This document shows, one piece after another, positions 6,347-33,569 of a stretch of 64,000 bases of DNA (position 1 is the first letter of the stretch; every line of letters starts with the position of its first letter). The notes beneath the pieces are model-generated. The model saw nothing but the letters and a program-made list of their open reading frames with translations. It was not told the origin of the DNA and made no database searches. The translations under genes were made by a program, and so were the position numbers. The stretch is from Emcibacter sp. SYSU 3D8 (GTDB taxonomy: Bacteria > Pseudomonadota > Alphaproteobacteria > SMXS01). Location of the stretch: the NCBI RefSeq assembly GCF_039655875.1, contig NZ_JBBYXK010000002.1, positions 434,001 through 498,000 of the forward strand, written 5' to 3'.

Positions 6347-9300
6347 TCAGTTGCCGGTGATGCTGCTGGTGGCGCTGTTGCCGATGGAGGTCGAGCCGAC
6401 CTGGTTGCCGCGCACCGTGAACGAGCTTCCGGTGCTGACGGCGTTGCCCAACGCAACCGTGTTGCCGATGCCGATGGACACATCGTTGACCGACGACGAG
6501 ATCGTGGCGCCCGACGTGGTCTGCAGGTTGGCCACCGTCGCGCTCGGATGCTGGAACGTACCGGTGTTCAGCACCAGGCTGTTGACCGCCCGGTTGCCCG
6601 TGGTGGTCGCCTCGACGATGTTGTCGTTGACGCTGAGCGCACTGTCGACCACACCGGTCAGGCCGGAGAAGTCGTCGATGGCAATCGTCACATTGTCGAT
6701 GTCCGTGTTCACCGTTGCGGCGTCCAGGCTCTGCCAGTTGAGAACGGCGTAGTCACTGTCGCTGACCACGATCGGCCGCACACCGGCCGGGTCGATGGTG
6801 ACGCCCGCACCCGAGGATTCCTGCAGGGTCGAGCCCGCCGTGGTCGACAGGGCGTTGAGCGCCGTGTTGCCGGTGGCGGAACCCAGCACTTCGTTCTCGT
6901 TGATCGTGACCGAGCTGTTGACGGCGCCGGTATCGGCGTCGTTGTGGCTGATGATCACCATGTCGATATCGTTTACGTCGGTATCGATGGTGCCGCCATT
7001 GATGTCCTGGCGGTTCAGCACGTTCGCCGTGGCGTCGCTGGCGGCGCCTGCATTGAGCACCAGGATGTTCGAGGAGCTGAAGCCCGTGCTGGTGCCGCTC
7101 ACGACATTCTGGTTCATCACGGCAGCATCGCCGTCCAGTTCCGATTCGATGTCGATGAGCAAGGAGCCGTCCTCGACATCAACATCGATTGCCTGGGCGC
7201 CGGTCTGGAAGTTCAGGATGTTGAAGTCGGCGTTGAGCGTGAGTGGATTGGTGGCCGACAGGTCGCCGACAACCGGGGCCGGTGCGCCAACCGCGCCGGT
7301 GATCGCCGCCCCTGCATAGATGTCGATCCGGTTGGAAGCCGAACCGCCGATGCCCTGGCCCAGCATGTTGTTGCCAGAGATGCTGACCGCGACCGCGTCG
7401 GTGCTGGCGATGCTGTTGATGTTGGCCTCAAGCGTCATGTCTTCCGTATCGACCTCGACGCTGCTGCCGTCCGTCAGGACCTGCTGCGAAATGACCGAGG
7501 CGGAGGCGCCGTCCAGATTGGCGAGGTTGCCGTTGTCGACAACAACAAGCTGGCCGCCTGAGTCGAGGCCATAGCCCGCGCCAATGCCCAGCCGGTTGGT
7601 GGCGCTATGGATGACCGCCTGACCGAGCAGCAGATTGTTGTCGATGGACACGGTGCCGCTATCGACCGTGTCGAAGAAGGCCGACAGGTTGGTGTTGTCC
7701 ACCTCGGCAATCACATCCTCGGTCTCGATACCGCCGATGGCGGGACCCTGGACGTTGAGGATGCTGGCATCCGAGGCCACGGTCACGTCGAATGCGCCCG
7801 TGGGATCGATGGTGGCGGCAGGCGCCGCACCGCCCGAGCCGCTGAATACGTTGGTCCCGTCGAGAACCAGCTGGTTGGTGGCGCGGTTGGAGCTAGCCAG
7901 GGCGGCGATCGCGTTGCCGTCGACGCTGGCATGGCTGTCGGTGGTGACCGATGTGCCGACCGGGTCACCGCGCACGATGAGCGAATTGCCATCCTGCGAC
8001 GCGGTCACGACCAGGTTACCCGGACCAGGCGTCTGGACATTGGCGACAAAGGCAGATGCGTTGTTGGTGACGAAGTCCACCGCCGCGGCATTGCTGGCTT
8101 CATTGCTGCGTGCCTCGGAAAGCAGGGTGTTTCCGCTCACCGAAATGGTCGAGGCGTCGATCGTGCCGGGGCCTTCCGCGTCGGCGATCAGGCTCATGCT
8201 CTGACCGATGGCGGTCACGTCATAGCCATTGATCTGATAGGACGCGATACCGAACGCCAGATCGTCCGCCGCCACACTGCCGCCGGGGGCGCCGCTGAGC
8301 GCCTTGACCTGAGGCGTGCCGGCAACGGCCTCCTCATAGGTGGTGCCACTGACGGCGAGGGTGTTGATGCCGTTGTTGACGCGGGCCACCGACCGGATGT
8401 CGTTCCCGTCCACCGTCAGCGTGATGCCGTCTGCGGCGTTATCCACATCGGCCACGCTGGCGAGGATATCGACGCCCTGGATCTGCGCCTGAACCACGCC
8501 GACAGCGCCCGCCTGGTCGGCGTCGCTGGAACGCTGGGCGTTGCCGATGATGCCAAGCGGCGCATTACCGGCGCCGCCGCCGATGAGAGCATCGTCCAGG
8601 TCGAACGAACCCACATCGAGGGTCATCGAGTTCCTGGCTTCATTGGCGAGCGATTGCGCCTTGATGCTGTTGGCGTCGGCCGTCACCGTGCTGTTCTCGA
8701 TGGAGCCATCATTGGTGCCGGCGGTCACCTGGATATCCGTATCGTCGATAAGCACGGACAGGCCGTTGCCCATCAGGCCATTGAAATCCTGATCGTTGAG
8801 CAGGCCCGTCTCGGCCCGCATCACGCTCTTGTCCGCGCCGATGTTGATCGAATTGATGTCTGCGCCTGCGATGATGCCGGTGACTTCCTGCGTCTGGGCG
8901 CTGATCTCGACAGCGTTCGTGCTGTTATTGATCCGGGCAGACCCGAGGATGCTGTTGCTGTTGGCCTCGGCATTCAGGTCGCTGATCGTGGTGGCGCCAG
9001 CCTGAACGTCGACAAGGATGTCGCCGGTAACGCTGACTTCCACCGAACCGGAACCGTTGAACTGGTCTTCCTCGTCCCACAGGGTCTGGGTGTTGACCAG
9101 CGTGCTGTTAGCGTCGAGCGTCACGGCGCCGACATCGATCAGGTTGTTGCTGGTATTGAGTGCAACCGAGCCCTCGATGGCATTCTGGCTGGCCGAGACA
9201 TCGACCTTGCTGAGCGTCGCGCCGGCATCGGTGGACCCGATCGCCACATCGACGAAATTGCCGATGACGGTGGCCGTGATCGGGTTGCCCTCCGAATCCT

Positions 9301-11668
9301 CGAAGCTCTGATCGCTGATCAGCGAGAAGCCGGAATTGACGGTCGTCTGGGGCAGATCGTCACCCGCGATGTTGCGGTCGACCTGGGCTTCAATGGCGCC
9401 GATCGATACTTCCAGAGCCTTGGACCCTGCCGCCGTGCGCGAGCCCATGTCATTGTCGCCAACTGTAACACCCGAGATGGTGATCGCGTTGGTGTCCGAG
9501 TTCACCAGGTTGCCGAATACCTGGGCGCTGATGCTGTTGCCGTCGGCATCGAACTGCGAGTCGGAGGTCGCCAGCGCATTCGAGTCCATGTCGACGATGG
9601 CCAGGCCTGCGACGTCGTCGCCGGGACGGACGGTGGCAGAGAGGTTGAGACCGATCTTCGACGCGTCGTTGGAATTCTGCACCACCTGGGTGCTGACCAG
9701 GCCGACCGAAGCGTCGAACGTCGCGCCGCCGCCATCGCTGTTGATGTCGATATGGTTTTCGTTGATGACGTTGCCGATGATCAGGGCGACCGCGGCGTTG
9801 CCCGACGCGCTGACATCGGCCTGGGTGACCGAGCCCTTGGTGCCGCCGATATCGGCAGCCTCGACAACAAAGCTGCCGATCGTCGTCGAGGACAGCGTGC
9901 TGTCGTCGACATGCTGCGAACTGACAAGCGCGATATCGGTCGAGGCGCTGGACACCAGGTTCGACCGCCAGGACCGGGTCATGAAGCCGAGGTTGGTTTC
10001 ATTCGGATCGACGCCCGGACCGTTGATGGTGGTGGCATCGATGCTGAGATTGTTCGAGCCGTTATTGGTGATCGCCGAGCTGCCGATCCGGTTGCCATCG
10101 GCGTTGATCGCCGTGTCGTCGATCGTGCCGTCAGACCCGCCCAGTGTTGCAACGCTGACGGTCAGGTCGCCGTTGGTCGAGGCGATCTGCTGGTTGCCGC
10201 CATCGGTGTTCTGAAGGCTGGTCAGGGTGGTCAGGGCGTTGAAGGTGGTGACATTCTCCACATCGACGCGGTTGCTGACCGAGTTGCCCCCGGCGGCGGC
10301 GAAGATGGAGTTGCCGTCGAACACGCCGTCCAGCAGATCGGTGTCGCCGCCGATCACGCTGGAGCCCGTCGTGTCTTCGACCAGCACATTCAGGTCGCCG
10401 TCATTGACGTCGAGCGCACCGACGCCGTCGCCGATGGTCGCGGTGACGGTGGCCTCGGTGAACTGCAGGCTGGAGACAAAGACATCGCCCACCGCCAGCA
10501 CATGACCTTCTTCATTGCCCGCGTTGATCAGGCCAACATTGTCAGTCGCCTTGCCGGCGCTGAAGGTGCCGTTGACGGTGATGCCGTCGACCCGCGCCTT
10601 GTTGGTTGCGGTATTACCCATCGCGTCGGCAAGAATGTCGTTGCCCGCGAAATTGACCGTGGAGCCGGTCAGATTGTCGATCGGCTCGGTGCCGCCGAAC
10701 GTATCGCCGGCCTCGATTGCCACGTCCTTGACCTCGGCGGTGAGGCTCATCGCGTCCTGGCGATTGAGCTGGGCGTTCACGACGCCAACCGCGCCATCGA
10801 GGACGACATCCGAGGCGTTCTTCACGTCCAGGTCGTCGTCGAGCTGCAGGGTGTTGATGCCGTCGTTGCCCACGATCAGCGCTTCGATGGTGTTGTCCTG
10901 CACCGACAGCGGGATCCCGTCGATGGTGATCGTATCGTCGTTGACCAGCGCCAGCGAGCCGATTCGCGCGGTGGTCACCGTGGCCGTCGCATCGATCCCG
11001 TCATTGACCTGGGCCGATCCGATCAGCAGTCCGGCACTGGCCTCGAGGAAATCATTGAGTCCCTGAGCGATCTGGGTCTGCCCCAGTTCGGTGCTGCTCC
11101 AGGCCGGGTTGAGGTCGCCCTCGACCACGTTGACCGTGATGTTGCCCGAGGTGGTGGAGGTCAGCCTGTTGCGGTCGACCAGCTGCGAGCTGCCCAGCCC
11201 CAGATCCTCGGATGCCGCCTCGATTTCGAAGTTGGAAATCGCGCTGTCGATGGTCGTGGTGCCGCGGTTCATCTGGATGGAGCCGAGCGTGCCGGCGTCC
11301 GTTGCGCCCGATCCGGTTACTGTCCAGATGCTGATGGACTTGGTGTCTTCGATGTTGCCGATCGCCGTCGCGGTGCCGACGTTGTCGGTGACGGAAATGC
11401 TGTTGCCGGCGCCGCCCATGAAATCGTTGAGACCAGGCGCGTTGCTGGTGATCTTGGTGACATCGATCGTTGCACTGATCGGCGTGTTGTTGTTGTCCTG
11501 GTTGGTGACCGCCGCAATCGCCGTCGAACCGGCGTCTATGGCCAGCAACGGCGCGGGCTCCCAGGTCAGGCGCAGATTGGCATCACCCGCAGCATTGGCG
11601 CCGGTGAAACCTGCAGCCGTGGAAAGCGCGATTACGCTGACAGTTGCCAGCACATTGGATTTACGCAT
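6347..11668 (-). CDS. Giant secreted repeat protein 1 (HfaD/curlin-like, beta-strand repeats)
   Basis: A 1773-residue exported protein. An N-terminal signal peptide (MRKSNVLATVSVIALSTAAG, cleavage near ANA-AGD) is followed only by tandem, diverged modules of about 85-95 residues. Each module has a GN-x-I-x-A-x-A-x-GN-x-A-x-N-x-L block (for example VDGNAIAALASSNRATNQL), a spacer, an N-x-Q block (LVNTQ, LLNDQ, VANLQ) and a Ser/Thr/Asp-rich strand. I count about 19-20 copies by eye. The protein is acidic, rich in N, D, S, T, A and V, almost free of Cys, and ends FTVRGNQVGSTSIGNSATSS plus four residues. Such N/Q ladders suggest a beta-solenoid or curlin-like fibre. The ATG at 11668 is chosen over upstream in-frame codons because GAGGGGGG precedes it and the signal peptide begins there. 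It is divergent from tamA. No enzymatic domain is visible; an adhesin or fibre role is inference. Confidence 0.85.
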   Translation of the reverse strand: MRKSNVLATVSVIALSTAAGFTGANAAGDANLRLTWEPAPLLAIDAGSTAIAAVTNQDNNNTPISATIDVTKITSNAPGLNDFMGGAGNSISVTDNVGTATAIGNIEDTKSISIWTVTGSGATDAGTLGSIQMNRGTTTIDSAISNFEIEAASEDLGLGSSQLVDRNRLTSTTSGNITVNVVEGDLNPAWSSTELGQTQIAQGLNDFLEASAGLLIGSAQVNDGIDATATVTTARIGSLALVNDDTITIDGIPLSVQDNTIEALIVGNDGINTLQLDDDLDVKNASDVVLDGAVGVVNAQLNRQDAMSLTAEVKDVAIEAGDTFGGTEPIDNLTGSTVNFAGNDILADAMGNTATNKARVDGITVNGTFSAGKATDNVGLINAGNEEGHVLAVGDVFVSSLQFTEATVTATIGDGVGALDVNDGDLNVLVEDTTGSSVIGGDTDLLDGVFDGNSIFAAAGGNSVSNRVDVENVTTFNALTTLTSLQNTDGGNQQIASTNGDLTVSVATLGGSDGTIDDTAINADGNRIGSSAITNNGSNNLSIDATTINGPGVDPNETNLGFMTRSWRSNLVSSASTDIALVSSQHVDDSTLSSTTIGSFVVEAADIGGTKGSVTQADVSASGNAAVALIIGNVINENHIDINSDGGGATFDASVGLVSTQVVQNSNDASKIGLNLSATVRPGDDVAGLAIVDMDSNALATSDSQFDADGNSISAQVFGNLVNSDTNAITISGVTVGDNDMGSRTAAGSKALEVSIGAIEAQVDRNIAGDDLPQTTVNSGFSLISDQSFEDSEGNPITATVIGNFVDVAIGSTDAGATLSKVDVSASQNAIEGSVALNTSNNLIDVGAVTLDANSTLVNTQTLWDEEDQFNGSGSVEVSVTGDILVDVQAGATTISDLNAEANSNSILGSARINNSTNAVEISAQTQEVTGIIAGADINSINIGADKSVMRAETGLLNDQDFNGLMGNGLSVLIDDTDIQVTAGTNDGSIENSTVTADANSIKAQSLANEARNSMTLDVGSFDLDDALIGGGAGNAPLGIIGNAQRSSDADQAGAVGVVQAQIQGVDILASVADVDNAADGITLTVDGNDIRSVARVNNGINTLAVSGTTYEEAVAGTPQVKALSGAPGGSVAADDLAFGIASYQINGYDVTAIGQSMSLIADAEGPGTIDASTISVSGNTLLSEARSNEASNAAAVDFVTNNASAFVANVQTPGPGNLVVTASQDGNSLIVRGDPVGTSVTTDSHASVDGNAIAALASSNRATNQLVLDGTNVFSGSGGAAPAATIDPTGAFDVTVASDASILNVQGPAIGGIETEDVIAEVDNTNLSAFFDTVDSGTVSIDNNLLLGQAVIHSATNRLGIGAGYGLDSGGQLVVVDNGNLANLDGASASVISQQVLTDGSSVEVDTEDMTLEANINSIASTDAVAVSISGNNMLGQGIGGSASNRIDIYAGAAITGAVGAPAPVVGDLSATNPLTLNADFNILNFQTGAQAIDVDVEDGSLLIDIESELDGDAAVMNQNVVSGTSTGFSSSNILVLNAGAASDATANVLNRQDINGGTIDTDVNDIDMVIISHNDADTGAVNSSVTINENEVLGSATGNTALNALSTTAGSTLQESSGAGVTIDPAGVRPIVVSDSDYAVLNWQSLDAATVNTDIDNVTIAIDDFSGLTGVVDSALSVNDNIVEATTTGNRAVNSLVLNTGTFQHPSATVANLQTTSGATISSSVNDVSIGIGNTVALGNAVSTGSSFTVRGNQVGSTSIGNSATSSITGN

Positions 11669-11983
11669 TGGTAGCCCCCCTCGAGAAAATTTTGCGGCCT
11701 CAACAACACGCGGACTGATAGCCCGCCCATGCGCGACGCGGCAGCCCCACGGCCGAAAGACGCACATTTGATGTAAAAACCTTACCTTAGCCTGCGGCGC
11801 CTTACAACCATCGAAACGCGCCATCATCGAAACATCATACAACCTTAACCTGTTGTCGTGCCTCGTCCGCTCGTGGAAATAACGGCCCATTCGTGCCACA
11901 CTTGCCGGGGTCGAGGCCGCCCGCGACGGCGCGGGACGAACCATTCGCATGTTGCCGCGTTAACGCTCCGGAGGGGCGGACAG
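11669..11983. promoter_or_regulatory. Divergent promoter region, giant gene 1 / tamA
   Basis: This 315-bp region has no convincing gene. It must carry the promoters for the giant repeat protein (minus) and for tamAB (plus). It holds a direct repeat CATCGAAAC at 11809-11817 and 11825-11833, a 16-bp period that would suit two protomers of a regulator on one face of DNA, and an AT-richer stretch around 11766-11790. No binding protein can be named. Confidence 0.35.
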
Positions 11984-16900: not shown

Positions 16901-18330
16901 GCGGGTTGACCGTCGACACGGCCAGCGAACGGGCGCTGGACGTGGCGCTCGACCTGCCGGTGGCGCGCGGCACCAAGGGGCCATTCGCGCTCGCGGTCGA
17001 AACCGACAAGCCGCTCGCCCTCGACATCAAGGGCAACGCCGAACTGGCCTATCTCTGGCCGCTCACCGGCGCCTATGAACATATCGTCGGCGGACGGGCG
17101 ACCGTGGATGCGCGTGTCACCGGGTCCGTCGCCAATCCGACATTGAACGGCGACTTTGCCATTGCCGGTCTCACCTATCGCAACCTGTCCACGGGAACCC
17201 AGATCGAGGCCGCCAATATGCGCTTCGTGCTCAAGGACAGCCTGCTCGAGTTGCCGACCACCAATGCAACCGACGGTAGCAAGGGCAGCATCGTGCTGTC
17301 CGGCTGGGTGAGACCGCTGGCGCCCGGCGGCATGCAGGCCGACATCACCGCCCAGTTCACCAAGGCGCGCATCCTTAAGCTGCGCGACATGACGGCGCGC
17401 GCCACCGGCCAGATCCAATACACCCAGGACAAGGACGGCGCGCTGCTCAAGGGCGAGGCCGCCATCAACGAGGCCGAGTACACCCTCAATGCCAAGGCGT
17501 CGGACGATTTCGTCAAGCTCTACGTGGTCGAGCTGAACCGTCCGCCAGGTCTGATCAGCCTGCCCGAGAAGCCATCCGAGCGCACGTTCAAGACCCGGCT
17601 GCGGATCGACGTCACCGCAGGCAACCGCATTTTCGTGCGCGGCCGCGGCCTCGATTCCGAATGGAGCGGCAAGGTCCGCGTGCGCGGCACCACCGACCAG
17701 CTTGCCATGCAGGGACGGATCGAACTGGTGAAAGGCGAATTCGATTTCGCCGGCCGCCGCTTCGTGCTGCAGGACGGCTCGCGGATAGAATTGCTGGGCG
17801 GCACGGATCTCGATCCGGTCATCACCGCCCGCGCGGTATATTCGGTGACCTCGCTGACTGCCGAGATCGCGCTGACCGGGCGCGCCTCCAACCCGCAGAT
17901 CAAGCTGTCCTCCAACCCGGAGATGCCGCAGGACGAGATCATCTCGCGGGTATTGTTCGGCCAGGACAAGCAGAACCTGTCGGCATTCGAGGCCGCCCAG
18001 CTTGCGGCAGCCGTCGCCTCGCTGGGCTCGTCCGGCTCTGGCTTCGATGTCATCGGCAAGCTGCGCGGCGCCTTGACCCTGGACCGGCTGTCCGTGGGCA
18101 CCCTCGATCAGCCCGGCGCCGACGACGAGGACAATGCCGGCAAGCCGGTGATCCGTGGTGGCAAGTACATCACCAAGAACATCTATATCGAGGCGGGCAG
18201 CGCCACCGAGGAGGAAGACGCGCAGTCTGTCTCGGTGGAAATCGACCTGACCAAACATCTGAGCGTGGGCACGGAAGCGACAACGACCGGAAACCAGAAG
18301 TTCAAGCTGCAGTACAAGCTGGATTACTAA
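13972..18330 (+). CDS. tamB: TamB inner-membrane AsmA-like translocation module
   Basis: A 1452-residue protein, matching the usual TamB length of 1200-1500. An N-terminal transmembrane anchor (YVLGALVLAVVLLYALVRMG, residues 16-35) is followed by a long, repetitive beta-taco region and the conserved C-terminal DUF490 domain (about 1110-1452), which includes FDFAGRRFVLQDGSRIEL, the NPQIKLSSNPEMPQDEIISR signature and the ending FKLQYKLDY. In other bacteria TamB spans the periplasm, contacts TamA and helps move phospholipids and outer-membrane proteins. It follows tamA with a one-base overlap. Given the divergent giant repeat gene, a role in surface display of that protein is worth considering, but this is inference. 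Confidence 0.92.
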   Translation: MAEAPAEHKGTTRWKRAAAYVLGALVLAVVLLYALVRMGAFNGMIAGLIEDALSDPATGTVATVNGLRGDPLSDAAIRGLTIAERGKVTVAAEQIELRWSHLRLLSGRVRVETLTAERLLLAAAPPGGPEQPLPTALPKLPVDVRLVRLKVDEIRFEGSPTVFTLVGAGRWTTDPAIEVRLALAPQDPDGEFIRLSVDYEPNENRLVLDGKLTSKSGGGLGDFLFPGESGDISLVLAGEGSVENWRGRLDGKRGNDVVAALDIAVTDRLRIDGMLDPRPFLPGTETTALIGAPRVTLDLKLKNGLPDTYTAGIVNDGANIRLAGSLADREAILSPRFSVVSSNAAWFAPVLGGWTFGRASLSGAVSQTGDGPNVQATMAVERLAGDGFAARKFSGDISLTASDAGGTLAYALTGKGAVEGIDAGERNLRADWMLDGRYDPGKEQISITDLRLSDNGSRIAAKGDVSLSPLSVKGSATVAVTEIGRWTGAGMRGGIAADGSFEWRPDRGRLMVKAKGSAKGLVLADARLSALLGPAPSFRLELDDPAGNGQGELDGAVTGAQVTASLKGRIGRTVDAVYEARFADVAALAGDGALEASGPLIVTGTLRGATDSPDVTLRTQLAQASLSGIAITDLALTAEATDLGGAPRGRIDAAFAMDGEKVTAEIPFLFDETGGWTADPIEVKGKSASLSGSLASASLGAPMTGRLDLRLSGRGVMSALAGMPASGSVEGAVILEPEEDVQGLRFDVAVAKASFATGDGSVATVARARLEGDVAIGDALDVRRITLDGTDITAGRAKLASLAATVTPSGGGLALTASAKGEFEGPLELSLQGRADRAILAAPNTITLDSLDGTFAGQKIALSAPATAVLAEDRTDIGPIRLSYNGAPLEMQATLRDSGSTARLSGRDLDLSVMSILTGGQDVAGKLTIDGQIDFSGGMPRGEANLQVKDLIVEDTLDQKPVDLKGSVTLAGGRVKGGLTVDTASERALDVALDLPVARGTKGPFALAVETDKPLALDIKGNAELAYLWPLTGAYEHIVGGRATVDARVTGSVANPTLNGDFAIAGLTYRNLSTGTQIEAANMRFVLKDSLLELPTTNATDGSKGSIVLSGWVRPLAPGGMQADITAQFTKARILKLRDMTARATGQIQYTQDKDGALLKGEAAINEAEYTLNAKASDDFVKLYVVELNRPPGLISLPEKPSERTFKTRLRIDVTAGNRIFVRGRGLDSEWSGKVRVRGTTDQLAMQGRIELVKGEFDFAGRRFVLQDGSRIELLGGTDLDPVITARAVYSVTSLTAEIALTGRASNPQIKLSSNPEMPQDEIISRVLFGQDKQNLSAFEAAQLAAAVASLGSSGSGFDVIGKLRGALTLDRLSVGTLDQPGADDEDNAGKPVIRGGKYITKNIYIEAGSATEEEDAQSVSVEIDLTKHLSVGTEATTTGNQKFKLQYKLDY

Positions 18331-23210: not shown

Positions 23211-24365
23211 CTAATACAGGAACATGGGCTTGCCCTGAACCTGGCGGATCACCGGGCGGTACTGCTCGGTGTCGTAGAGCTCGGCCACGTCGACCCGCCG
23301 CTTGCCCTGGATGCAGGTATCCACAGGCACGGTGGTGTAGTTGCCGTCGCGGATCGCCATCATCAGGCCGCTCCTGCCCTCGGCCAGCAATTGCACCGCA
23401 CCGACGCCATAGGCCGAGGCAACCATGCGGTCGAGGGCGTCCGGCGCACCGGCACGCATCAGATAGGCCAGCGACTGGTTGACGATGCCCTGGCCGGTGA
23501 TCCGTTGCAGTTCCTCGCCCAGATAGGTGCCGATGCCGCCCAGCTTGCGGTGGCCGTAGGCATCGGCCTCACCGGTCTCGACAGTCCTGCCGCCCGTCAT
23601 CGAGGCGCCTTCGGAAATCACCACCATGGCATACCCCGCCGGATTGTCGGTCTTGTCGCGCATCACCAGTTCGGCGACCTTCTCCACGTCGAACGGCACC
23701 TCGCTGATCAATACCCGATCGGCGGCAGCGAGATAGCCTGAGATCAGCGCCGTCTCGCCGCTGTTGCGCCCGAACAGCTCCACCACGGCGATACGCTCGT
23801 GGCTCCCCGTCGGCGTGCGCAGGGCGTCGATGGCCTCGACGCTACGGCTGACCGCCGTGCCGAAGCCGATGCAGTAATCGGTGCCGAAGACGTCATTGTC
23901 CATGGTCTTCGGACAGGCCATCACCTTGACACCCTCCTGATGCAGCCGCGCCGCATAGGACAGGGTGTCGTCGCCGCCAACGGCAATCAGCGCGCCGATG
24001 CCCAGCTTCTCCAGCACATCGACCACATGGTCGGTACAGTCGATGCGCGCGCCGGCGTCGACCGCATAGGGCGATTCCAGAAAGCGGGGAAGATCCTTCA
24101 CCGCCACCCGTCCGGGATTGGTGCGCGATGTGTGAAGGATGGTGCCGCCGGTGCGGTCGATGCCGCGTACCCGGCCCCGGTCGAGGATCATCGTGTTGGC
24201 GTCGATGGATTCTCGGTCGTCCGGATCGATGTTGAGGAGACCGGCCCAGCCGCGGCGGAAGCCGACGGTTTCCCAACCAAGCTCGGCGGCGCTGGTGGCC
24301 ACCGCCTTGATACAGGGATTGAGGCCCGGAACGTCGCCGCCGCCCGTGAGAATTCCGATCCGCAT
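23211..24365 (-). CDS. 6-phosphofructokinase, probably PPi-dependent
   Basis: A 384-residue phosphofructokinase. [17 protein letters not shown] near the N-terminus is the phosphate-donor loop; [14 protein letters not shown] and [15 protein letters not shown] are the donor and catalytic motifs, and later [22 protein letters not shown] contributes the sugar-phosphate site. In the family, GGDD rather than GGDG, together with PKT rather than PGT, marks pyrophosphate-dependent enzymes, so reversible fructose-6-phosphate phosphorylation with PPi is likely. The ATG at 24365 has AGGAG seven bases upstream, so the longer in-frame extension is rejected. It is convergent with the carboxyltransferase gene and lies downstream of giant gene 2. 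Confidence 0.85.
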
Positions 24366-24522: not shown

Positions 24523-27500
24523 CTAGTTGCTGCCGATGCTGTTGGTAGCCCGGTTGCCGATGGCCGTGGCGCCAACCGTGTTGCCCTGCACCTTCAGCGT
24601 GCTGTTGTTGCTGACGCCGCTGATATTGACGCCGCTGCCAATGCCCACCAGCGTATTGGTGACCGTTGCGGAAATCGTGGTCCCCGAGATGGTCTGCAGG
24701 TTCGCAACAGCTGCGGACGGATGCTCGAACGTACCCGTGTTCAGCACCAGGGAATTGACCGCATCATTGCCAATGCTGCTGGCGCCGACCTCGTTGCCGC
24801 TGACGTTCAGCACTGAATCGGTGACGCCGCCGACAAACCCGTCGATCCCAACCGTCACGTCCGATGCCGTGGCCAACAATCCCTCGTCAAATCCAGACAC
24901 CGACTGACGGTTCAGCACCGCATATTCGGCGCCGGTGATTCCGATCTCGGTCGAGGCGCCCGGATCGATGGATACGCCCGCGCCGGCTTCTTCCTGCAAG
25001 GCCGCGCCCGCGATGGTGGCAAGGCTGTTCAGGGCCGTGTTGCCGGAAACCGAAGCCTGCACCTGGTTGCCGGCGACATTGGCGCTGCTGTCCAGCCCGC
25101 TGCCCGCTACGGCCAGGCCGATGGCGATCTCGTCGGCATCGGCGGACAGGGCCGCGAAGCCGTCAAGCACCTGGATGCTGGCAACCTGTGCGGTGGCGTC
25201 ACTGGACGATCCCGCATCCAGGCCGAGTGCATTGCTCGCATAGAAACCGCGCGTCTGCGCGATCACCATGTTGTTGTCGACGGTCAGCGCGTCGGTGACC
25301 GCATCGGAGTCGACAACGATGCCGATGCCGGTCAGCGATACCTCTGACGCAATGTCCTCTTCGTCGCTGAAGGCTGTCTGCATGTTGAGCAGGGAGTAAT
25401 CCGCATCCAGGTTGATGTCGTCCGAGCCGGGGAAACCGACGGACGGTGCCGGTGCGGTAACCCCGCCGAGGATGGCCGCACCTGCGGTCGCCGTCAGGCG
25501 ATTGGTTGCCGTGCCACCGGTGGCGGTGCTGGCCACGGAGTTCCCCGACACACTTGCCGCCACACTGCCGCTGCTGCCGATTGCATCAAGGCCCTCCGAG
25601 GCCGCCGAGTTGATCGCGTCGGCCGCCCCGATTGTCACGTTGGTGGTAAGGGCCTCGACCTCGCCGTCGTCAGAGATTGTCTGAACCGAGACCAGCGCCG
25701 CGCTGGGCGTTTCGTCCACCGCGCCGATATTGGCGGCGCCGGCGATGGACAGCAGATTTGACGCGCTGTGCACCATTGCCTGACTGAGCACGGCATTGTT
25801 GTCCACGGTCAACGACCCGGTATTGAACGTCGCCACGTCCGCCAGAATGTTGACGGTATCGACGGTTGCGTAGACGTCTTCGTCCTCGTTGGGCGATGTG
25901 AAGTCCGGACTGCCCTGCATGTTGATCAGCGCGATATCGCCGGTCACCCCGATCATGGGCGCGCCGCCTGCACTGATGGACGCTGAGGGCGCTACGTCGA
26001 AGCTGCTGAGGATATTGGTGCCCGTGACAGAAAGCGTATTGGCTGTCCGGTTGGAGGAGGCGAGAGCACCGATACCATTGCCCTCCAGGCTGATGCTGAC
26101 CCCATCCAGCGCCGGGCTGATGCCGATCGTATCGCCATCCACATCCACCAGAATCTCGATATCGAAGACGTCGGCGGTAATGGACGGATCCTCATCCGTC
26201 GCGCTCTGCACATTGGCCAGGAATGCCTGTCCGTAATTGGTGACGTAGTCGGACACCAGCAGGTTCGACGAATCGCTGCCGCGCGCTTCCGCGATCAGCG
26301 AATTGCCGCTGGCTGACAGGTCGGTGCCGGTGATGGTGGGCGCACCGTCGGCGATGATCCGCATGCCGACGGGCGTGCCGCCGCCCGAACCGGTCAGCGC
26401 CGCTGTGACGTCGTGGCTGTTTACCTGGTTGGAGGCCAGACCGAATACGGAGTCGGTGAAGGTCACGATGTCGCCGGAGCCGGAATCGTACACCTCTGCG
26501 GTGGGAAATTGGGTGTCGGCGGGATTGATATTGGGCAGCGAGGTGCCCGTGGCCGTCAGCACGTTGCTGACATTGTTGACCCTGGCCACCGCCCGCATTT
26601 CATTGCCGTCGATGGTCACTGAACCATCGCTGATCGCGCCGGCAACGCCGGAAAGGTCCAGGATGGCCCGCGTCGTATCGCCGAGCGCCGAGAAGCCGTT
26701 GTTAGTATCCGTGACTTCTGATCCCTGGTTCGACACCAGCATGGCAAACGGTGCGCTGCCGGTGACCGGCGCGCTCAAGGTCCCGATGTCGAGGGCCAGC
26801 CTGTTGCTGGCATCATTGCCCAGGGCCTGAATGGTCATGGCGTTGCCATCGATCTCGGCGACATTGTTGGTGAAGGCACCCGCGGTGCCGACGACCATGC
26901 TGAAGTCCGAATTGTCGTTGACGACGTCGAGACCGGCGCCGCTGCCCGCATCGCCAAGATCGACAAACCACTGGTCATTGACGAGTGAGTGCGCGGCGGC
27001 TGTGAACATGCCCGAACCGTCAATTGCCGCAGTTTGATTGCCGACTGATTGATACTCGCCGGGCGCCTGTGTCTGAGCCTCGACCGACAAAGTGTTGGTG
27101 GCGAGGTTGATGCGGCCGGAGGCCAGCAGTTCGTTGCCGTCAATCTCGAAGCGCGCGCCGGTAATGGATTCGGGCGAGCCGTCGCCGGTCCTGCCGACGC
27201 TCAGGGTGATGTCCGCATCGTATTGGTTGGCGATCAGTGCCGCCGAATTGCCGTCACCATCATCGTCGGCGACGGACTGCATATTGATCAGCGACGACAT
27301 GGCATCCAGCGTGGTTGCCGCATCGACGGACAGCGAGGAGGTGGCCTGGTTCAAGGTGGCCGAGACGACACCGGCATTGCCATTGGCGGTGAATTTGCTG
27401 TCGGTCAGCGCGAATGCGGGATTCAGTCCGATGCGCACGAAGACAAGGTCACCCTGCGCCCCATCCGCGACGATGCCGTTGGTCGCGGTGACGATGGCGC

Positions 27501-29706
27501 CTTCCAGGTCTTCCACGGCCTGGTCGTTCAACACGATAAAGTCCGAGACGCTTTCGGCCTCTGCAACACCGGAGCCCCGCTGGGTAGCGGCATAGCCAAG
27601 CGCGGAACCCGAGACGATGGTGGTGCCGGCGACGTCAAGCGAGGTCCCGGTGCCATCCGACAGGTTGCCGAAGACGCGGGCGCTGAACACGTTGCCGTCC
27701 GTGTTGATGCTGGAATCCGCGATCTGCTGCGGAAATCCCCACACTTCGAGTTGCGATTGATTGGTCGACGGCGAATCCGTCTGAGCCGTCAGCGAGGCGC
27801 CGTCCTCGACGGTCTGGGAATTCGCTGCAATGGCGCCCAGGGTTACGCTGTTACCGGTGATATCAACGCTTGCCCCGGTGGACAGGTTGCCCACGGTCAG
27901 TGCCGAGATCTCGTTATTCGACGTGCTGATATGGGCGGTGTCGATCTCGGAGCCCGCCGGCGACAACATTGCCGAGTTCACACGGATATTGGAGATCGTG
28001 GTGGATTGGGCGCCGCCACCGTCAAGCACCTGCCCGTTGAGCAGAGATACCTCCGCGGATGCACCAATGAACGGAGACGAGCGGTAGTCCGCCAGGTCCG
28101 ATCCTGTCGTGCCATCACCCACAGTCGTGCCATCGATGACGATCGCGCTGTCGCCCACATTGCCCATGGCCTTGGAGAACAGGCGGTTATCCTCGACCAG
28201 CACTTCGGTGCCGACGATGTCGCCGGCGGCGCCGGCGAGGCTGGCGATAGACACCTGAAGATTGGCGCCATCACCCGCGGCGCCGGTATCGGCGGTCTGC
28301 AGGTTCTCGGCATATTGGATGGACTGGACCGCGGCGATCGAACCGAACGTGGTCGCCCCTTCTACCTGCAGATCGTTGACGGTGGCGTTGGCTGTTGCGG
28401 CGGCGCCGATGCTGTTGGACGACGCCGTGACGGTGGCGCCATCCAGATCCTCGGTCAGCACGAACATGTCGCCCTGGTCGCTGGCTGCGGCATCGACGAG
28501 GCTGTATTGCCCATTCTGGACGAACAGATCAGCGCCCACCTCGGCGATGTCGGGCGAACCGCCCGTGTAGGTGTTTGCCTGAGTGCTGAGGCTGGCAGCC
28601 TGGTTGACGCCATCAGCCAGATTCAGGGAATTGGCGGAAGTATTGGCCGTGGACTGGGCAATGATGTCGTTGCCGGTGAAGGTCAGGCTGCTGCCCGCCA
28701 GATCGGCAATGGCCGTGGATGTCGCCGACTCGCCGGCTTCGACCACGGAATTGGTGACGCTGGCCGAAAACGGTACGTCTCCGCCGCTGAGCTGAACGCT
28801 CGTGACTCCGGCGGTGCCGACCAGATCCAGCTTGCCGTCGTTGCCGACGTTCACGCTGGTGGCCGCGTCATTGCCGGTGAAATCCGCCCGGATCAGGCTG
28901 TTGGTCAGATCGAGATTGACGCCAGCAAGCGCCGCAGGCGTGCCGTCAACAGTGGCCAGGGTGCCGATCCGCGAATCGCCGACCGTCGCCGACGCTACCG
29001 CCAGATTGGCGTTGAGCTGCGCGCTGGCGGCGAGGATGGTCGCGCCCGCCACCACTTCGTCCGGCGCGCCGGGATTGGTCAGTGTCGACTGGCCAGCTTC
29101 GGCGCTGGAGAGACCGGGGTTGATGTCGCCCGCCACCATAGTCGAGGCCTGGTTGCCGCGGCCGTCGGACACGATGGCGTTGTTGTCGAGAATCACGGAA
29201 CTGCCCGTGCCGAGATCATCGAATTCCGACCGGATCTCCGCGCTGGACGTGGTGGCGCTGATGCCGACCGCACCAAGATTGACATTGGATTGAAGCGTGG
29301 CGGCTGTGGCCGCGCTGGTGGTGCCGGTGCCGGTGGCCGTGTACAGATCCACGAAGGTGCCGGGATCGGTATCGACCGCACCGACCACCACCGGACTGAT
29401 CGCCGCATTGCCCACGGCCAGGGCGAAAATCGTATTGAAATCCTCGAGCACGGTTACCGTGCCGCCCTCGACGTCCTGCGGACCGATCAGCGGAATGGAG
29501 ATGGACGCAACCGCGTTCGTGGCGCTGAGGGAGGTCGTCGTGTTGTTCTGGACGCTGGTGTCGATCACCGAACTCGCGCCTGGTGCCGTCAACGTCGGCG
29601 CCAGCGACAGGTCGAACAGGATGTTGTCGGCACGCGCACCGGAAACACCGGCCGCCGTGGCCAAAGCAATAGCGCTCACCGCCGTCAAGGCGAGATTAAA
29701 TTTCAT
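24523..29706 (-). CDS. Giant secreted repeat protein 2 (HfaD/curlin-like)
   Basis: A 1727-residue exported protein and clear paralog of the 1773-residue protein at 6347-11668. The signal peptide ([20 protein letters not shown], cleavage near ARA-DNI) is followed by about 19 modules with the pattern GN-x-I-x-A-x-A-x-GN-x-A-x-N-x-L, an N-x-Q block (LINMQ, LVNDQ, VANLQ) and Asp/Ser/Thr-rich strands. It ends [20 protein letters not shown] plus IGSN, near identical to its paralog. The start at 29706 is chosen because AGGGGG lies six bases ahead. It is the last gene of a minus-strand block after HfaA-like, CsgG-like and unknown exported proteins, which suggests it is the main exported subunit or adhesin of that system. 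Function is inferred from context and composition only. Confidence 0.87.
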
Positions 29707-29906
29707 GATTAGCCCCCTCAAAGCCCTACAAATCGCGGCAGCCGGCCACTGGCCGTATTTGCGCGCGGCTGAATCTCAGACTCAGCGGCTAAAGGGTACA
29801 AGACAGGGGGGCAACGGCCAAGAAAAATGACATCAATTTGGCGAAAAATATCGAGAAGAAGCAATGAGATACCACTGCCGCTCTCGGGTTCCCGGCAGGA
29901 TCTGGA

Positions 29907-31124
29907 TCAGAACGCCGGCATACCCGGCGCGAGCGGAACATGGCCATAGGTCTGGCCCGGCACGAAGAATATGCCGTTGTGATGCACCACGAGAGCCAGC
30001 GGATCGTGCATCACCGAAACATAGTTGCGGCCGCAGCAATCATGCAGATGACGGATGAGCCAGTCGCGGCGGTCATACACGGACCGGTCCGACAGCGACA
30101 ACTGGATATCGCCGGGCAGATCCCAGTTGCCGATGGCATAGGCGCTGCGCGCAGCCGGGGACAGGTCGGCAGGGTCCTGCGCGCTCTGCAGCGGCTCGAC
30201 ATTGATGGCCTGGAACGAGTTCACGGTCTCGAACGAATTGATCGGGCCGAACGGGCGGAACCGGCCGCGCGGATAGACCACGAACTCACCGCCATCCGGC
30301 CGCTCGCCCCTGGCGAATTGCGATACGTGGACGACGCTGACCTTGTCTCCCAGGTCGACCCCCACCAGATCGCCCTTCGCCAGGGTGATCATGTAGGCCT
30401 TGTCCTCGGCCGGCCGGTCGGGCGCCGCATCCTGACTGTAGATCGGCCCGCCGTCGTAATTCTCGGCGGGCGGCATGTCCTGCAACGGGCCTTCACCCGG
30501 CATCGGGCCTGTCGCCAGCTTGGGCGCGGCACCGATTTCCGGCAATTGTCGCTCGAACAGGGTGCCTTTGGAACGGCTGCGCGCCAGTGGCGCCATGGAT
30601 ATGCCGTCGGCCAGTTCGGCCCCCATCAGCGCGCCTTCGGGTCCGACGATCGAGCGGGCATGGGCGCGGCTGGTGCGTTTCATGAACAATATCCGCGCGC
30701 TGGCGCCACCCTGGTCGGGTGCAGCGGCGGCGTGCTTGTCCAAGGCGTTCTCGACGGAACTGAGGTCGCTGCCCGCCTGGATTGCGTCTGGTCGATTGCG
30801 AATCGGCGCGTCTGGCGTTGCAGCCGCCTCGGACATGGGCGCAGTCGCGCCATCGATCCAGCGGCGGAAGGACGGCGAAACATGCTCGGCCCACTCGACG
30901 CCCGGCGCCGGGAGACCGGTGACACCCGGTGGCGGCGGCGTCATGGCTGGTGGCGGCGTGCGGCTGTCACCGATGTCGCCGGTTTCGCCCAGCGGCATGC
31001 CGTCCCCGGTAACCGGGTCGGCAGGTATCTCGGTGTTAAGGGGTTGGGCGTCCACAGCGGCAGCGAGAACCCCCGCCAGTACCGCCGCGATCACTCCCGA
31101 GCCGCCCCACCATGCCTTCACCAT
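29907..31124 (-). CDS. Unknown exported protein of the Hfa-like operon
   Basis: I do not recognise this 405-residue protein. It has a signal peptide (VIAAVLAGVLAAAVDA), a Pro-rich linker at about residues 35-75 (TPPPAMTPPPPGVTGLPAPG), a low-complexity Ala/Asp middle, and a more folded-looking C-terminal half (about 235-405). That half contains AYMITLAKGDLVGVDLGDKV, INSFETVNSFQAINVEP and the cysteine-containing RHLHDCCGRNYVSVMHDP. It lies 40 bp downstream of the CsgG-like gene and 200 bp before giant gene 2, so it is probably cotranscribed with the export system. A GGGGGG run lies just before the ATG. It may be an accessory periplasmic factor, analogous in position only to CsgE/CsgF-type helpers. 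Confidence 0.75.
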   Translation of the reverse strand: MVKAWWGGSGVIAAVLAGVLAAAVDAQPLNTEIPADPVTGDGMPLGETGDIGDSRTPPPAMTPPPPGVTGLPAPGVEWAEHVSPSFRRWIDGATAPMSEAAATPDAPIRNRPDAIQAGSDLSSVENALDKHAAAAPDQGGASARILFMKRTSRAHARSIVGPEGALMGAELADGISMAPLARSRSKGTLFERQLPEIGAAPKLATGPMPGEGPLQDMPPAENYDGGPIYSQDAAPDRPAEDKAYMITLAKGDLVGVDLGDKVSVVHVSQFARGERPDGGEFVVYPRGRFRPFGPINSFETVNSFQAINVEPLQSAQDPADLSPAARSAYAIGNWDLPGDIQLSLSDRSVYDRRDWLIRHLHDCCGRNYVSVMHDPLALVVHHNGIFFVPGQTYGHVPLAPGMPAF

Positions 31125-31164
31125 TGCCCCCCATGGCCTGCCTACGCCCGCTGCATCAGCCGCT

Positions 31165-32478
31165 TCACTTCAGCAGGGCGGTATCTTCCAGAATCTGGAT
31201 CACCACGCGGCGGTTCAGCGGTTCGGCGGCATTGTCCCCGGTCTTCACGGCCGGCTGGCTTTCGCCATACCAGACCAGCGAGATACGGTTCTTCGGAATG
31301 CCTTCCTTGACCAGCGCCTCCTGGACCACCACGGCGCGGCGCCGCGACAGGTCAAGGTTGTAGAGTTCCCCGCCCTGGGTATCCGCATGGCCCTCAAGCA
31401 GCAGGTTGGCTGCCTGACCGGCCCTTGCGGCGGCGGCGGCATCGGCGATGGTCTTCGCGGCCTCCGGCGTCAACTGGGCGCTGGCGGTGGCGAAATATAC
31501 GGTGAACGTGCTGGCCTTGGGCGGAACCGGGGCTTCCGGCGGCGGCGGCGGCTCTTCCGGCGCGACGGCCACCGGCACGCCAGCCACTGACGGACAGGAA
31601 TTCACGCCCTCAAAATTGACCAGCGGCTTTTCGTCAACGCCGGTGACGGCGCCGACCAGCTCGAGCACGCCCAGTTCGAGGACGGTGCGAACGCCCAGCT
31701 GCAGCGGCTCCTGGCTCTTCAGGCCGGCATTGACGTCGACCAGGGTGTTCTTGAAGAAATTGAAGACGTTGGCGCCCACTTCGTAGCCGGTAATCTGCTT
31801 CTGCAGGCTGACGGTCTTCAGCACTTCCAGCGACGAGGTGTCGACGATGCGCAGGTCAGCCGCGACGTTCACGGTGAACACGCGGCCCTTGCCGCCGAAC
31901 CCGTCGACGTTCACTTCCAGGCCACCGGACTGCACGTTGTAATTGAGCTCGGTGATGCCGCCCACGATGAAGTAGTCGGATTCGATGACCGTGCCGCCGT
32001 AATACGGCTTCCACGGAACCTTCTGCGAACTGCCGGTCTTGCCGCGAACCTCGTGCACGGACCCGTCGCCGAGATAGCGCCGGTCGAGATAGCGCAACTC
32101 AAGCTCGGTAACCTGCGTGTCGAAACGTTCCTGCATCCGCACCGCGTCGCCCAGCTTGCCGAGCGCCGACATCACCATGAGCGAGCCGCCCTGGGTGATC
32201 GGGTTGCCACCTTCCGATTCACTGAATTTGCCGGTGTAGTCCTTCACCGTGCCGACGGCGACGCGGATCTTGTTGCGGCCATTTTCACGGATTTTCTGAG
32301 CCATGCACTGGAATGTGCCTTCCAGCGGCGTGGTGTTGTCGGTAACCGGCGGGCCCTGCACAGTGGGCGCCTCATCAGGGTTACGTTTGTAGTGATCGAC
32401 CGACGCCATGCACCCGGTCAGCGAAATGATCGCTGCGTAGGTGACGATATTCCTGCACAAAGTAAAGCCGGTAGTCAC
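31165..32478 (-). CDS. hfaB: HfaB-like CsgG secretion lipoprotein with C-terminal OmpA domain
   Basis: A 437-residue outer-membrane lipoprotein. A lipobox (AAIISLTGC, Cys about 23) is followed by a CsgG domain at about 50-270. Key pieces are IRVAVGTVKDYTGK, SDYFIVGGITELNY, AADLRIVDTSSLEVLKTVSL and VGANVFNFFKNTLVDVNAGL, where CsgG forms the nonameric export pore. A Pro-rich linker (EEPPPPPEAPVPP) joins an OmpA-like peptidoglycan-binding domain at 330-437 (EGHADTQG, YNLDLSRRRA, YGESQP, EPLNRRVVIQIL). E. coli CsgG lacks this domain. The start is GTG at 32478 with GAGGGGG six bases upstream. By family it should export amyloid-like subunits; the OmpA domain would anchor the pore to the cell wall. 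Confidence 0.82.
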   Translation of the reverse strand: MTTGFTLCRNIVTYAAIISLTGCMASVDHYKRNPDEAPTVQGPPVTDNTTPLEGTFQCMAQKIRENGRNKIRVAVGTVKDYTGKFSESEGGNPITQGGSLMVMSALGKLGDAVRMQERFDTQVTELELRYLDRRYLGDGSVHEVRGKTGSSQKVPWKPYYGGTVIESDYFIVGGITELNYNVQSGGLEVNVDGFGGKGRVFTVNVAADLRIVDTSSLEVLKTVSLQKQITGYEVGANVFNFFKNTLVDVNAGLKSQEPLQLGVRTVLELGVLELVGAVTGVDEKPLVNFEGVNSCPSVAGVPVAVAPEEPPPPPEAPVPPKASTFTVYFATASAQLTPEAAKTIADAAAAARAGQAANLLLEGHADTQGGELYNLDLSRRRAVVVQEALVKEGIPKNRISLVWYGESQPAVKTGDNAAEPLNRRVVIQILEDTALLK

Positions 32479-32537
32479 GTTATTCCCCCTCTTGCCCTTG
32501 CCCATTGGCCGGCGACGCCTGCCCGCGGACCAGATGT

Positions 32538-33224
32538 TCAGTTCAACGGCGCTGCGGCCGATTCACTGAACCCGCATGCTTCGCTGTTATCGACAGATGC
32601 GGTCTGCGGGCTATCCATGTTGCTCATATCAGAATTCAGCGCGACGTCCGAATGCCCCCCTGAGGAATTCATGCCGTCGACGCTGCCGGATACGCTGGAA
32701 TTGTCCACACCTGCGGTCTGCGGACTGTCGGTATTGCCCTGCGACGTATTGCTGAGCTGGCCAGCCTGCCCCACTGCGGACGATTGCCCGGAAGAGCTGC
32801 TGTTGGCCGAGCTGTCCGCCCCGTTTCCGGGCGACGAGCCGTTGGTCGCCGTGCTGCTGCTGTTGCCGGTTGCATTGGCGCCGATGCTGCCAGGCATATC
32901 GACCACCGGCGAGGACGCATTGCTGGTCACGCCGTTCGAGCCGGTGTTGCCAATCGCCGACGCGGTCAGGTTGCAGTTGATCTGATCGCCCGCGATGTTC
33001 GTGCTGTACGTGTTGTTGATGTTGGTGTCGAAACCATCGTAGTAGCCGCCCTTCTTCTTCTCGCGAAGGTCGGCGATCGACGCCTTGGCAATCTTGTCAT
33101 TCGGTGTATCGAACTGCCACGGCCGGTTCTCGAGGAACCCGTTGCCGAAGGCCGCGGATGCGCCCAAGACGACAGTGACCACCGAACATACGGCGGCCGT
33201 CATCAACTTGTTGGCATTCGTCAT
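32538..33224 (-). CDS. HfaA-like small secreted subunit candidate
   Basis: A 228-residue secreted protein with signal peptide (LMTAAVCSVVTVVLGASAAFG). The mature N-terminus has ENRPWQFDTPNDK and a short conserved-looking block INNTYSTNIAGDQINCNLTA, AIGNTGSN; the rest is low complexity, rich in Ser, Asn, Gly, Asp and Ala, with a duplicated DSPQTA[GS]VDNS motif 39 residues apart (about 166 and 205). Position as the first gene before a CsgG-like pore, the small size and the N/S/G-rich composition fit HfaA or a curlin-like subunit, but sequence similarity to HfaA is weak. ATG at 33224 is chosen because GGAGGGGG lies five bases upstream. Confidence 0.65.
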   Translation of the reverse strand: MTNANKLMTAAVCSVVTVVLGASAAFGNGFLENRPWQFDTPNDKIAKASIADLREKKKGGYYDGFDTNINNTYSTNIAGDQINCNLTASAIGNTGSNGVTSNASSPVVDMPGSIGANATGNSSSTATNGSSPGNGADSSANSSSSGQSSAVGQAGQLSNTSQGNTDSPQTAGVDNSSVSGSVDGMNSSGGHSDVALNSDMSNMDSPQTASVDNSEACGFSESAAAPLN

Positions 33225-33569
33225 AGTCACCCCCTCCGAAACCCCCAGCGGCTTACAGCGTCATTAGGCATATCATCGTGCACCACGAGCGGCAATGGAA
33301 TTTTTCGTGTCAACGCGCCGCCGCGATCACCTAAGGGGAGATTATCACTACGCTTTTTGTAATGCCAGCCTGTTCGGGCAGACTCCGGCAACCGGAAACA
33401 AGCATATGCAGTGATGGTTACGGAACCAGAATATATTGCGGCGCCGCCGCGCCGCTCGCGCCGCGCCTCGCGCACAGAACGCCCCGGCATGCATGATCAT
33501 CGCAATTTTACCGACGTTGTTTTATTGATGGACGGAATACACATGCTTCTCAACGGTTTGGGATCTCGG
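33225..33569. promoter_or_regulatory. Divergent region, Hfa-like operon / thermonuclease
   Basis: This 345-bp stretch separates the Hfa-like operon (minus) from the thermonuclease-like gene (plus). Candidate signals are a TTGACA hexamer on the minus strand around 33303-33308 and a TCCGG-TTG-CCGGA dyad at 33384-33396. No convincing gene is present, although a weak frame continues upstream of the thermonuclease start from 33411. No regulator can be named. Confidence 0.35.

What the first reader, a model, noticed from the sequence alone, without database searches (positions are those of the whole stretch)
24523..33224. CsgG/Hfa-like secretion operon with a giant repeat protein as likely cargo
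Four minus-strand genes lie in a row with short gaps: an HfaA-like secreted protein, a CsgG-domain lipoprotein, an unknown exported 405-aa protein, and a 1727-aa N/Q-rich repeat protein. CsgG-family pores export curlin-like subunits (curli system) and HfaA/B/D anchor holdfasts in Caulobacter; HfaD is normally a few hundred residues. A cargo of over 1700 residues with about 19 N-x-Q/GN modules would be an unusually large amyloid- or solenoid-like surface protein. The assembly may be a new variant of the Hfa/curli pathway. Function is inferred from domains and gene order.
Basis: partly seen in the sequence, partly recalled or inferred. Interest (0 to 1): 0.88.

Follow-up and report, generated by a model that had tools for sequence, protein, structure and literature searches.

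The report
Giant repeat proteins beside curli-type pore
A little-known group of bacteria carries a curli-type outer-membrane export pore fused to a cell-wall-binding domain, together with a scattered family of enormous, evenly repeated surface-type proteins that may be its cargo and may form adhesive fibres.

Summary
In detail: window 24523-33224 (-) encodes a secreted Asn-rich protein, a CsgG-type lipoprotein, an exported 405-aa protein and a 1727-aa repeat protein.

The interpretation needs revising. The pore gene is HfaB-like but under the HfaB cut-off (229.7 vs 300 bits) and carries a C-terminal OmpA domain. P0004 and the giant do not match HfaA or HfaD.

The giant belongs to a dispersed multigene family: 5 full-length copies in this genome (one more in this window, 6347-11668), 10 in a relative. 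All 24 full-length copies lack cysteine, are strongly acidic, about 1.7-1.8 kaa, and share 20 Gln anchor columns with alternating short/long spacing. Only 3 of 6 assembled operons have a giant attached.

A second bacterial family has the same gene pair beside two ~365-aa relatives of the giants.

Most likely this is a CsgG/HfaB-type export system with expanded giant cargo. Export by this pore is inferred; 2 of 9 giant-bearing relatives have no detected pore gene. New variant of a known kind.

The parts
32538..33224 (-). P0004: secreted 228-aa Asn/Ser-rich protein, first gene; conserved N-terminal half (PWQFxT...GGYYDGFD...TNIAGDQINCNLTASAIGNT)
   Evidence: no Pfam/NCBIfam/PHROG match; signal peptide by eye
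31165..32505 (-). P0003: CsgG/HfaB-type pore lipoprotein fused to an OmpA domain (446 aa); lipobox LTGC read by eye
31636..32271 (-). CsgG domain of P0003 (about aa 79-290)
   Evidence: Pfam CsgG 57.7 bits at aa 172-289; E. coli CsgG chains over 79-285
31192..31500 (-). OmpA/Pal-type peptidoglycan-binding domain of P0003 (about aa 336-438)
   Evidence: Pfam OmpA 74.3 bits; Pal structures E about 5e-12
29907..31124 (-). P0002: exported 405-aa protein of unknown function, third gene; relatives seen only in the same bacterial family
   Evidence: no match in Pfam, NCBIfam or PHROGs; AF2 model useless (pLDDT 27.9)
24523..29706 (-). P0001: giant 1727-aa repeat protein with 20 Gln anchors; signal peptide by eye; no Cys, net charge -157
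24526..24600 (-). C-terminal cap of P0001 ([25 protein letters not shown]); similar ends in the 24 full-length giants and, more weakly, in the short relatives
6347..11668 (-). Second giant of the same family (1773 aa), about 34% identical to P0001, divergent from tamA-tamB
23211..24365 (-). Phosphofructokinase gene (neighbour); boundary of the empty site in operons without a giant

Best explanation
It is an export operon of the CsgG/HfaB kind. Shown by sequence: P0003 has a CsgG pore domain and a C-terminal OmpA domain; P0004 and P0002 are conserved operon partners; the giants have Sec-type signal peptides (by eye), no cysteine, no translocation domain that Pfam or NCBIfam recognises, and 20 repeated Asn/Gln/Gly-anchored modules. 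Inferred: P0003 forms an oligomeric outer-membrane channel tied to peptidoglycan by its OmpA domains; P0004 is a small secreted partner with the position HfaA has in holdfast operons; Sec delivers unfolded giants to the periplasm, and they thread through the channel and fold outside into a long stacked beta structure held by Asn and Gln ladders, as in the functional amyloids CsgA and FapC. The paralogs would be alternative or joint components of surface fibres or adhesins. P0002 is probably a periplasmic helper.
For: CsgG and OmpA domains. P0004-P0003-P0002 in 6 of 6 assembled operons of two genera. In 385 genomes of the class the giant profile rings in 6: five of this family (f1) and G087 of family f79; the P0004 family and a CsgG match of at least 64% identity occur in the same genomes except G004 (the P0004 profile contains the G087 row, which was first found by tblastn at 37% identity, E 7e-27). 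In G087 the P0004-pore pair lies about 1.7 kb from two tandem ~365-aa relatives of the giants (profile E 2.1e-9 at the C-terminal side, 7e-5 at the N-terminal side). Gln is kept in 22-24 of 24 giants at each of 20 anchors, with alternating 74.7/96.8-residue spacing in all 24. No RTX, autotransporter or TPS family; 0 Cys in 24 of 24. AF2 on four modules gives 18 strands and no helix, at low confidence.
Against: No experiment links pore and cargo. In 3 of 6 operons no giant is attached. Of 9 giant-bearing genomes of the family two, G004 and G008, have no CsgG-domain match; both are drafts, G004's contig starts in P0002 and G008 holds only a giant fragment at a contig end, so loss and assembly gap cannot be told apart. 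Another giant is divergent from tamA-tamB in 4 of 5 genomes read there, and beside tamB in the fifth. Co-occurrence rests on two lineages. The 200-bp gap before the giant shows no promoter or terminator pattern. The module model has pLDDT 58 and no significant fold match. No sequence similarity to any solved structure.
Confidence: 0.5

Rival explanations
1. The pore exports only the small partner P0004 (as HfaB is thought to export HfaA, and CsgG exports curlin). The giants are a separate surface or periplasmic family that merely lies beside it in some genomes.
For: P0004-P0003 is the constant pair, also in family f79 and, weakly, in small clusters of f41 with no modular neighbour; giants are absent from 3 of 6 operons, and other copies lie elsewhere; G004 and G008 have giants and no detected pore.
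Against: In the 385-genome sample giants occur only in the two lineages that have this pore type, and short relatives lie beside the pair in f79. Giants carry no other recognised export domain.
Confidence: 0.26
2. The giants are exported or folded with help of the TamA/TamB machinery or another Omp85-type channel, as in two-partner secretion.
For: A giant is divergent from tamA-tamB in 4 of 5 genomes read at that place, and next to tamB in the fifth, where tamA was not found and the giant lacks its 5' part.
Against: No two-partner-secretion or haemagglutinin domain in any of 16 giants scanned; in the other fetched giant loci no tamA or tamB match; none in the 18 kb of L146, where short relatives lie by the CsgG gene. 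The tree does not put all tamAB-side giants in one group.
Confidence: 0.1
3. It is a diverged holdfast anchor: P0004 is HfaA, P0003 is HfaB and the giant is an overgrown HfaD that anchors an adhesive polysaccharide.
For: HfaB is the best NCBIfam match of P0003 (229.7 bits); giants and HfaD share a pattern of A-x-x-GN and N-x-Q motifs and have similar C-terminal ends.
Against: P0003 is under the HfaB cut-off of 300 while HfaB controls score 391 and 409; no HfaA or HfaD match; giant-HfaD profile comparison E 0.2, and no HfaD of 30 among the printed module-HMM matches.
Confidence: 0.11

Closest known systems
HfaA-HfaB-HfaD holdfast anchor of Caulobacter
   Same: CsgG-family pore gene after a small secreted Asn-rich gene; downstream repeat protein with N-x-Q and GN motifs; HfaB model matched over nearly its whole length
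   Different: P0003 has an OmpA domain and scores below the HfaB cut-off; HfaA and HfaD profiles do not match P0004 or the giants; the giant is about four times as long as the HfaD proteins, multicopy, and there is an extra gene P0002
Curli system (CsgA/CsgG)
   Same: CsgG channel domain; cargo of repeated modules with conserved Asn and Gln
   Different: No curlin-repeat match; modules of about 75 and 97 aa instead of about 23 (PMC10192328, passages read); no CsgE or CsgF match in P0002 or P0004 (the genome was not searched for them); giant copies of near-constant length, dispersed
Fap functional amyloid (FapC)
   Same: Long imperfect repeats with conserved Asn and Gln, stacked into a solenoid with loops (PMC12822426, passages read); FapC was the first but non-significant fold match
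   Different: Fap uses the FapF porin, not CsgG; the giant profiles match no solved chain by sequence
Very large Shewanella adhesins with curli-like repeats (mentioned in PMC3521004, passages read)
   Same: Very large proteins with regularly spaced curli-like repeats
   Different: The passage does not link them to a CsgG-OmpA pore; their sequences were not compared here

Membership tests
CsgG family (Pfam PF03783) | CsgG domain above gathering score | tested here: met
   57.7 bits vs 20.8; E. coli CsgG over 79-285
HfaB (NCBIfam NF037935) | Score over curated cut-off 300 | tested here: not met
   229.7 bits; controls L041 391.1 and L060 409.3
OmpA family (Pfam PF00691) | OmpA C-terminal domain above gathering score | tested here: met
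   74.3 bits vs 27.2, profile positions 1-98 of 98
HfaA (NCBIfam NF037934) | Score over cut-off 50 for P0004 | tested here: not met
   no match at E up to 1; control 158.7 bits; profile comparison E 0.092 over 11 columns
HfaD (NCBIfam NF037936) | Score over cut-off 100 for the giant | tested here: not met
   no match for P0001 or in genome G000; control 338.8 bits
Curlin (CsgA/B) | Curlin repeat Pfam model | tested here: not met
   no curlin match for P0001 or P0004 or among 16 giants
Autotransporter, RTX or two-partner-secreted adhesin | Translocator barrel, RTX nonapeptides or TPS domain | tested here: not met
   no such Pfam/NCBIfam match in 16 giants; GGxGxD 0-1 per protein in 24
Functional amyloid | Fibre formation with cross-beta structure | not testable with these tools
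   only a sequence pattern; AF2 model of low confidence
Substrate of the CsgG-type pore | Surface export depends on the pore | not testable with these tools
   needs gene removal and a surface assay

The most novel reading that the evidence does not exclude
A peptidoglycan-tethered CsgG-type channel that serves a whole multigene family of giant cargos, each chain folding into a complete, near-fixed-length, amyloid-like 20-module rod by itself, so that length is set by the gene and not by polymerisation. It would have arisen by internal expansion of a ~365-aa ancestor of the kind kept in family f79.
Probability: 0.28. Interest if true: 0.8.

Novelty: new variant of a known kind. Interest (0 to 1): 0.6.

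Why it matters
The cargo known for CsgG-type pores is mostly short and self-polymerising (recalled, and PMC10192328 passages). A pore fused to a cell-wall-binding domain and paired with a dispersed family of ~1700-residue, 20-module proteins would widen what this secretion route can carry and would give a natural, length-defined amyloid-like rod. It also makes testable how CsgG-family pores select cargo: the conserved ends of the giants and of the short relatives are candidate signals.

Tried and rejected
HfaD and HfaA membership for the giants and P0004: rejected by NCBIfam, profile-profile comparison and a module HMM. As positive control HfaA and HfaD align significantly with each other (E 8e-7).

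Phage origin: no PHROGs match for P0001, P0002, P0004, P0008 at E up to 0.1.

Structure: AF2 of four modules (10 rows from the two window giants) gave pLDDT 58.2, pTM 0.49; Foldseek gave no match at E below 0.001, so no fold is claimed. AF2 of P0002 (window plus L034-L036) failed, pLDDT 27.9. A first module alignment with overlapping rows collapsed and was replaced.

Wider searches: the giant profile in 398 genomes of the phylum matched only the own genome. In some searches at most 2 candidates per genome were scored, so copy numbers come. The organism's name was not found; same-genus records are labelled inconsistently.

A last search showed that G004, G008 and G009 have no CsgG-domain match; odds of the best explanation were lowered from 0.56 to 0.5 for that, and those of the first two rivals raised a little.

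Full report
Observation. The four minus-strand genes are at the stated coordinates. In transcription order: P0004 (228 aa from ATG), P0003 (446 aa), P0002 (405 aa) and P0001 (1727 aa from ATG 29706). Gaps are 32, 40 and 200 bp. A promoter/terminator scan of 29500-33450 found 1 promoter-like and 2 terminator-like sites, about as many as in shuffles (0.7 and 2.6 on average), none between P0002 and P0001. Whether P0001 belongs to the same transcript is open.

The pore gene. P0003 has a lipobox (LTGC, by eye), a CsgG domain (57.7 bits) and a C-terminal OmpA domain (74.3 bits). Both halves match solved structures: E. coli CsgG over residues 79-285 and Pal-type lipoproteins over about 336-436. Its best NCBIfam model is HfaB, 229.7 bits, under the cut-off of 300; HfaB controls from two other families reach 391 and 409. 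The fusion is seen in the six complete copies of this bacterial family (G000, G001, G002, G003, G006, G007). In the 385-genome class sample 4 copies span both domains; of 31 other CsgG-domain matches in the printed rows, none runs past residue 348 (the list was cut at weak matches).

Operon partners. In six assembled operons the order is P0004-P0003-P0002. In G001, G002 and G006, P0002 is followed by pfk after about 100 bp with no giant; in G000 and G003 a giant lies between; in G007 (another genus) a giant follows P0002. So the giant is adjacent in 3 of 6. A seventh copy (G005) is cut by a contig end.

The giant family. A search of 13 genomes found matches in 9, all 9 being of this family (a tenth member, G009, was searched only with the short relative, no match). 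Full-length copies: 5 in G000, 5 in G003, 10 in G006 (plus 3 partial), 2 in G002, 2 in G007 (plus one cut by a contig end); G001, G004, G005 and G008 show only pieces. The 24 full-length proteins are 1673-1824 aa (starts chosen by script, two left untrimmed), pairwise 26-65% identical (median 38%), have no cysteine, and net charge -107 to -207. Columns with Gln in at least 60% of them number 27; I took 20 of these as module anchors for their N-x-Q-like context and spacing and left 7 out. Gln is kept at each anchor in 22 to 24 of 24, and gaps alternate, 74.7 +/- 6.6 and 96.8 +/- 9.4 residues, in all 24. The ends are alike, of the type V-x-GN-x-x-G-x-x-x-x-GN. A control that counts all invariant columns, not only the anchors: residue-shuffled segments give 0-1 against 9. 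A tree of 25 rows (the 24 plus the cut G007 copy) shows several groups shared by species of the genus, so multiplication predates these species; the operon-adjacent copies of G000 and G003 are not each other's closest relatives.

No known family. P0001 has no match in Pfam, NCBIfam or PHROGs. Among 16 giants scanned no family matches more than one member (single matches down to E 0.0017, judged chance). No solved chain matches the profile at E up to 10.

Distribution and the short relatives. In 385 genomes of the class the giant profile rings in 6: G000, G001, G003, G004, G007 and G087, the last weakly (E 7e-6) and from another family, f79. G087 has a P0004 relative (37% identity, E 7e-27) and the closest CsgG gene outside the family, 64% identical and without OmpA. 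The P0004 profile, which contains rows from this family and G087, rings in G000, G001, G003, G007 and G087, and weakly in two f41 genomes. In G087 the genes lie together: two tandem modular proteins of 362 and about 365 aa (79% identical), about 1.7 kb of other sequence, then divergently the P0004 relative and the pore gene. The short proteins match the giants best at the C-terminal side (profile-profile E 2.1e-9; HMM 1e-10 and 1e-6) and more weakly at the N-terminal side (profile-profile 7e-5; HMM 0.0018 and 0.45). This suggests, without proving, that giants grew internally between conserved ends. In f41 the pore follows a short P0004-like gene and precedes a ~145-aa gene; no modular protein was seen within the fetched 19.5 kb.

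Cases against. Of the 9 giant-bearing genomes of the family, 7 have the pore gene (one partial); G004 and G008 have none, nor has G009, where no giant was found either. All three are drafts. G004 keeps P0002, pfk and giant pieces, with P0002 matching only from residue 144 on near a contig start; G008's giant piece lies at a contig end.

Relation to Hfa and curli. Giants and HfaD share a pattern (A-x-A-x-GN, N-x-Q) but are not alignable: hhalign E 0.2, against 0.58-0.94 for one reversed and five shuffled controls. A module HMM finds the two G087 proteins (E 1e-10 and 1e-3); none of 30 HfaD appears in the printed matches and of 19 HfaA only one at E 10; best reversed decoy 0.32. HfaA and HfaD do align with each other (E 8e-7). 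In Caulobacter HfaA and HfaD need HfaB to reach the outer membrane (PMC6707917, outline and introduction read), which is the model for the proposed role of P0003.

A competing neighbour. Another giant (window 6347-11668) is divergent from an Omp85/TamA and a TamB gene. The same arrangement was found in G002, G003 and G006; in G001 a giant lacking its 5' part abuts tamB and tamA was not found. The G002 copy there falls in another group of the tree than the G000, G003 and G006 copies. This keeps TAM-assisted export alive as a rival.

Structure. The AF2 model of the last four modules has only strands but low confidence, and no significant fold match; FapC came first at E 0.035, probability 0.06, which is not evidence.

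Literature. Searches: hfaA/B/D with holdfast (4 papers), CsgG/HfaB/curli (20 of 209 listed), CsgG with OmpA, fusion, curli-like and holdfast (none), CsgG with OmpA-like domain (12 of 51 listed), HfaB/CsgG-like (12 of 90 listed), CsgG with giant protein and solenoid. No listed title or abstract start describes such a fusion or such cargo. OMPdb (PMC9581022), which holds both CsgG and 'OmpA-like domain', was not read. Read in part: PMC6707917 (outline, introduction), PMC10192328, PMC3521004, PMC12822426 (passages). Subscription papers are mostly not held.

Verdict. The locus is a real and unusual variant of the CsgG/HfaB export theme. Pore and cargo are linked by gene order in two families and by co-occurrence in two lineages, with two draft-genome exceptions; export itself is inferred.

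Noticed in passing
window 6347-11668 (-) and 11858-18330 (+): Second giant, divergent from tamA (Omp85) and tamB; same arrangement in G002, G003, G006, and tamB with a shortened giant in G001.
   Followed up: partly
L146 6974-9500 (-), G087: Two tandem ~365-aa secreted proteins related to the giants, near the P0004-pore pair.
   Followed up: yes
L164 7862-9576 and L165 8041-9707 (-): Small three-gene clusters in family f41: P0004-like gene, CsgG gene and a ~145-aa unknown.
   Followed up: partly
L040 12015-12977 (-), with 13769-14437 (-): Genome G003 has a second CsgG/HfaB gene without OmpA, near a LuxR-type regulator-like ORF (regulator judged by eye).
   Followed up: no
L045, L046, L047 (G024): One genome of family f16 carries at least five CsgG-type genes, three of them within 10 kb.
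   Followed up: no
L147 (G004): P0002 matches only from residue 144 on, with unrelated sequence before it; no pore or P0004 gene found in this genome, loss or misassembly.
   Followed up: partly
L114 5513-9914 (G001:C56): A giant in three pieces of open frame in a row: broken gene or assembly errors.
   Followed up: no
window 707-3049 (-): TonB-dependent receptor, ordinary.
   Followed up: no
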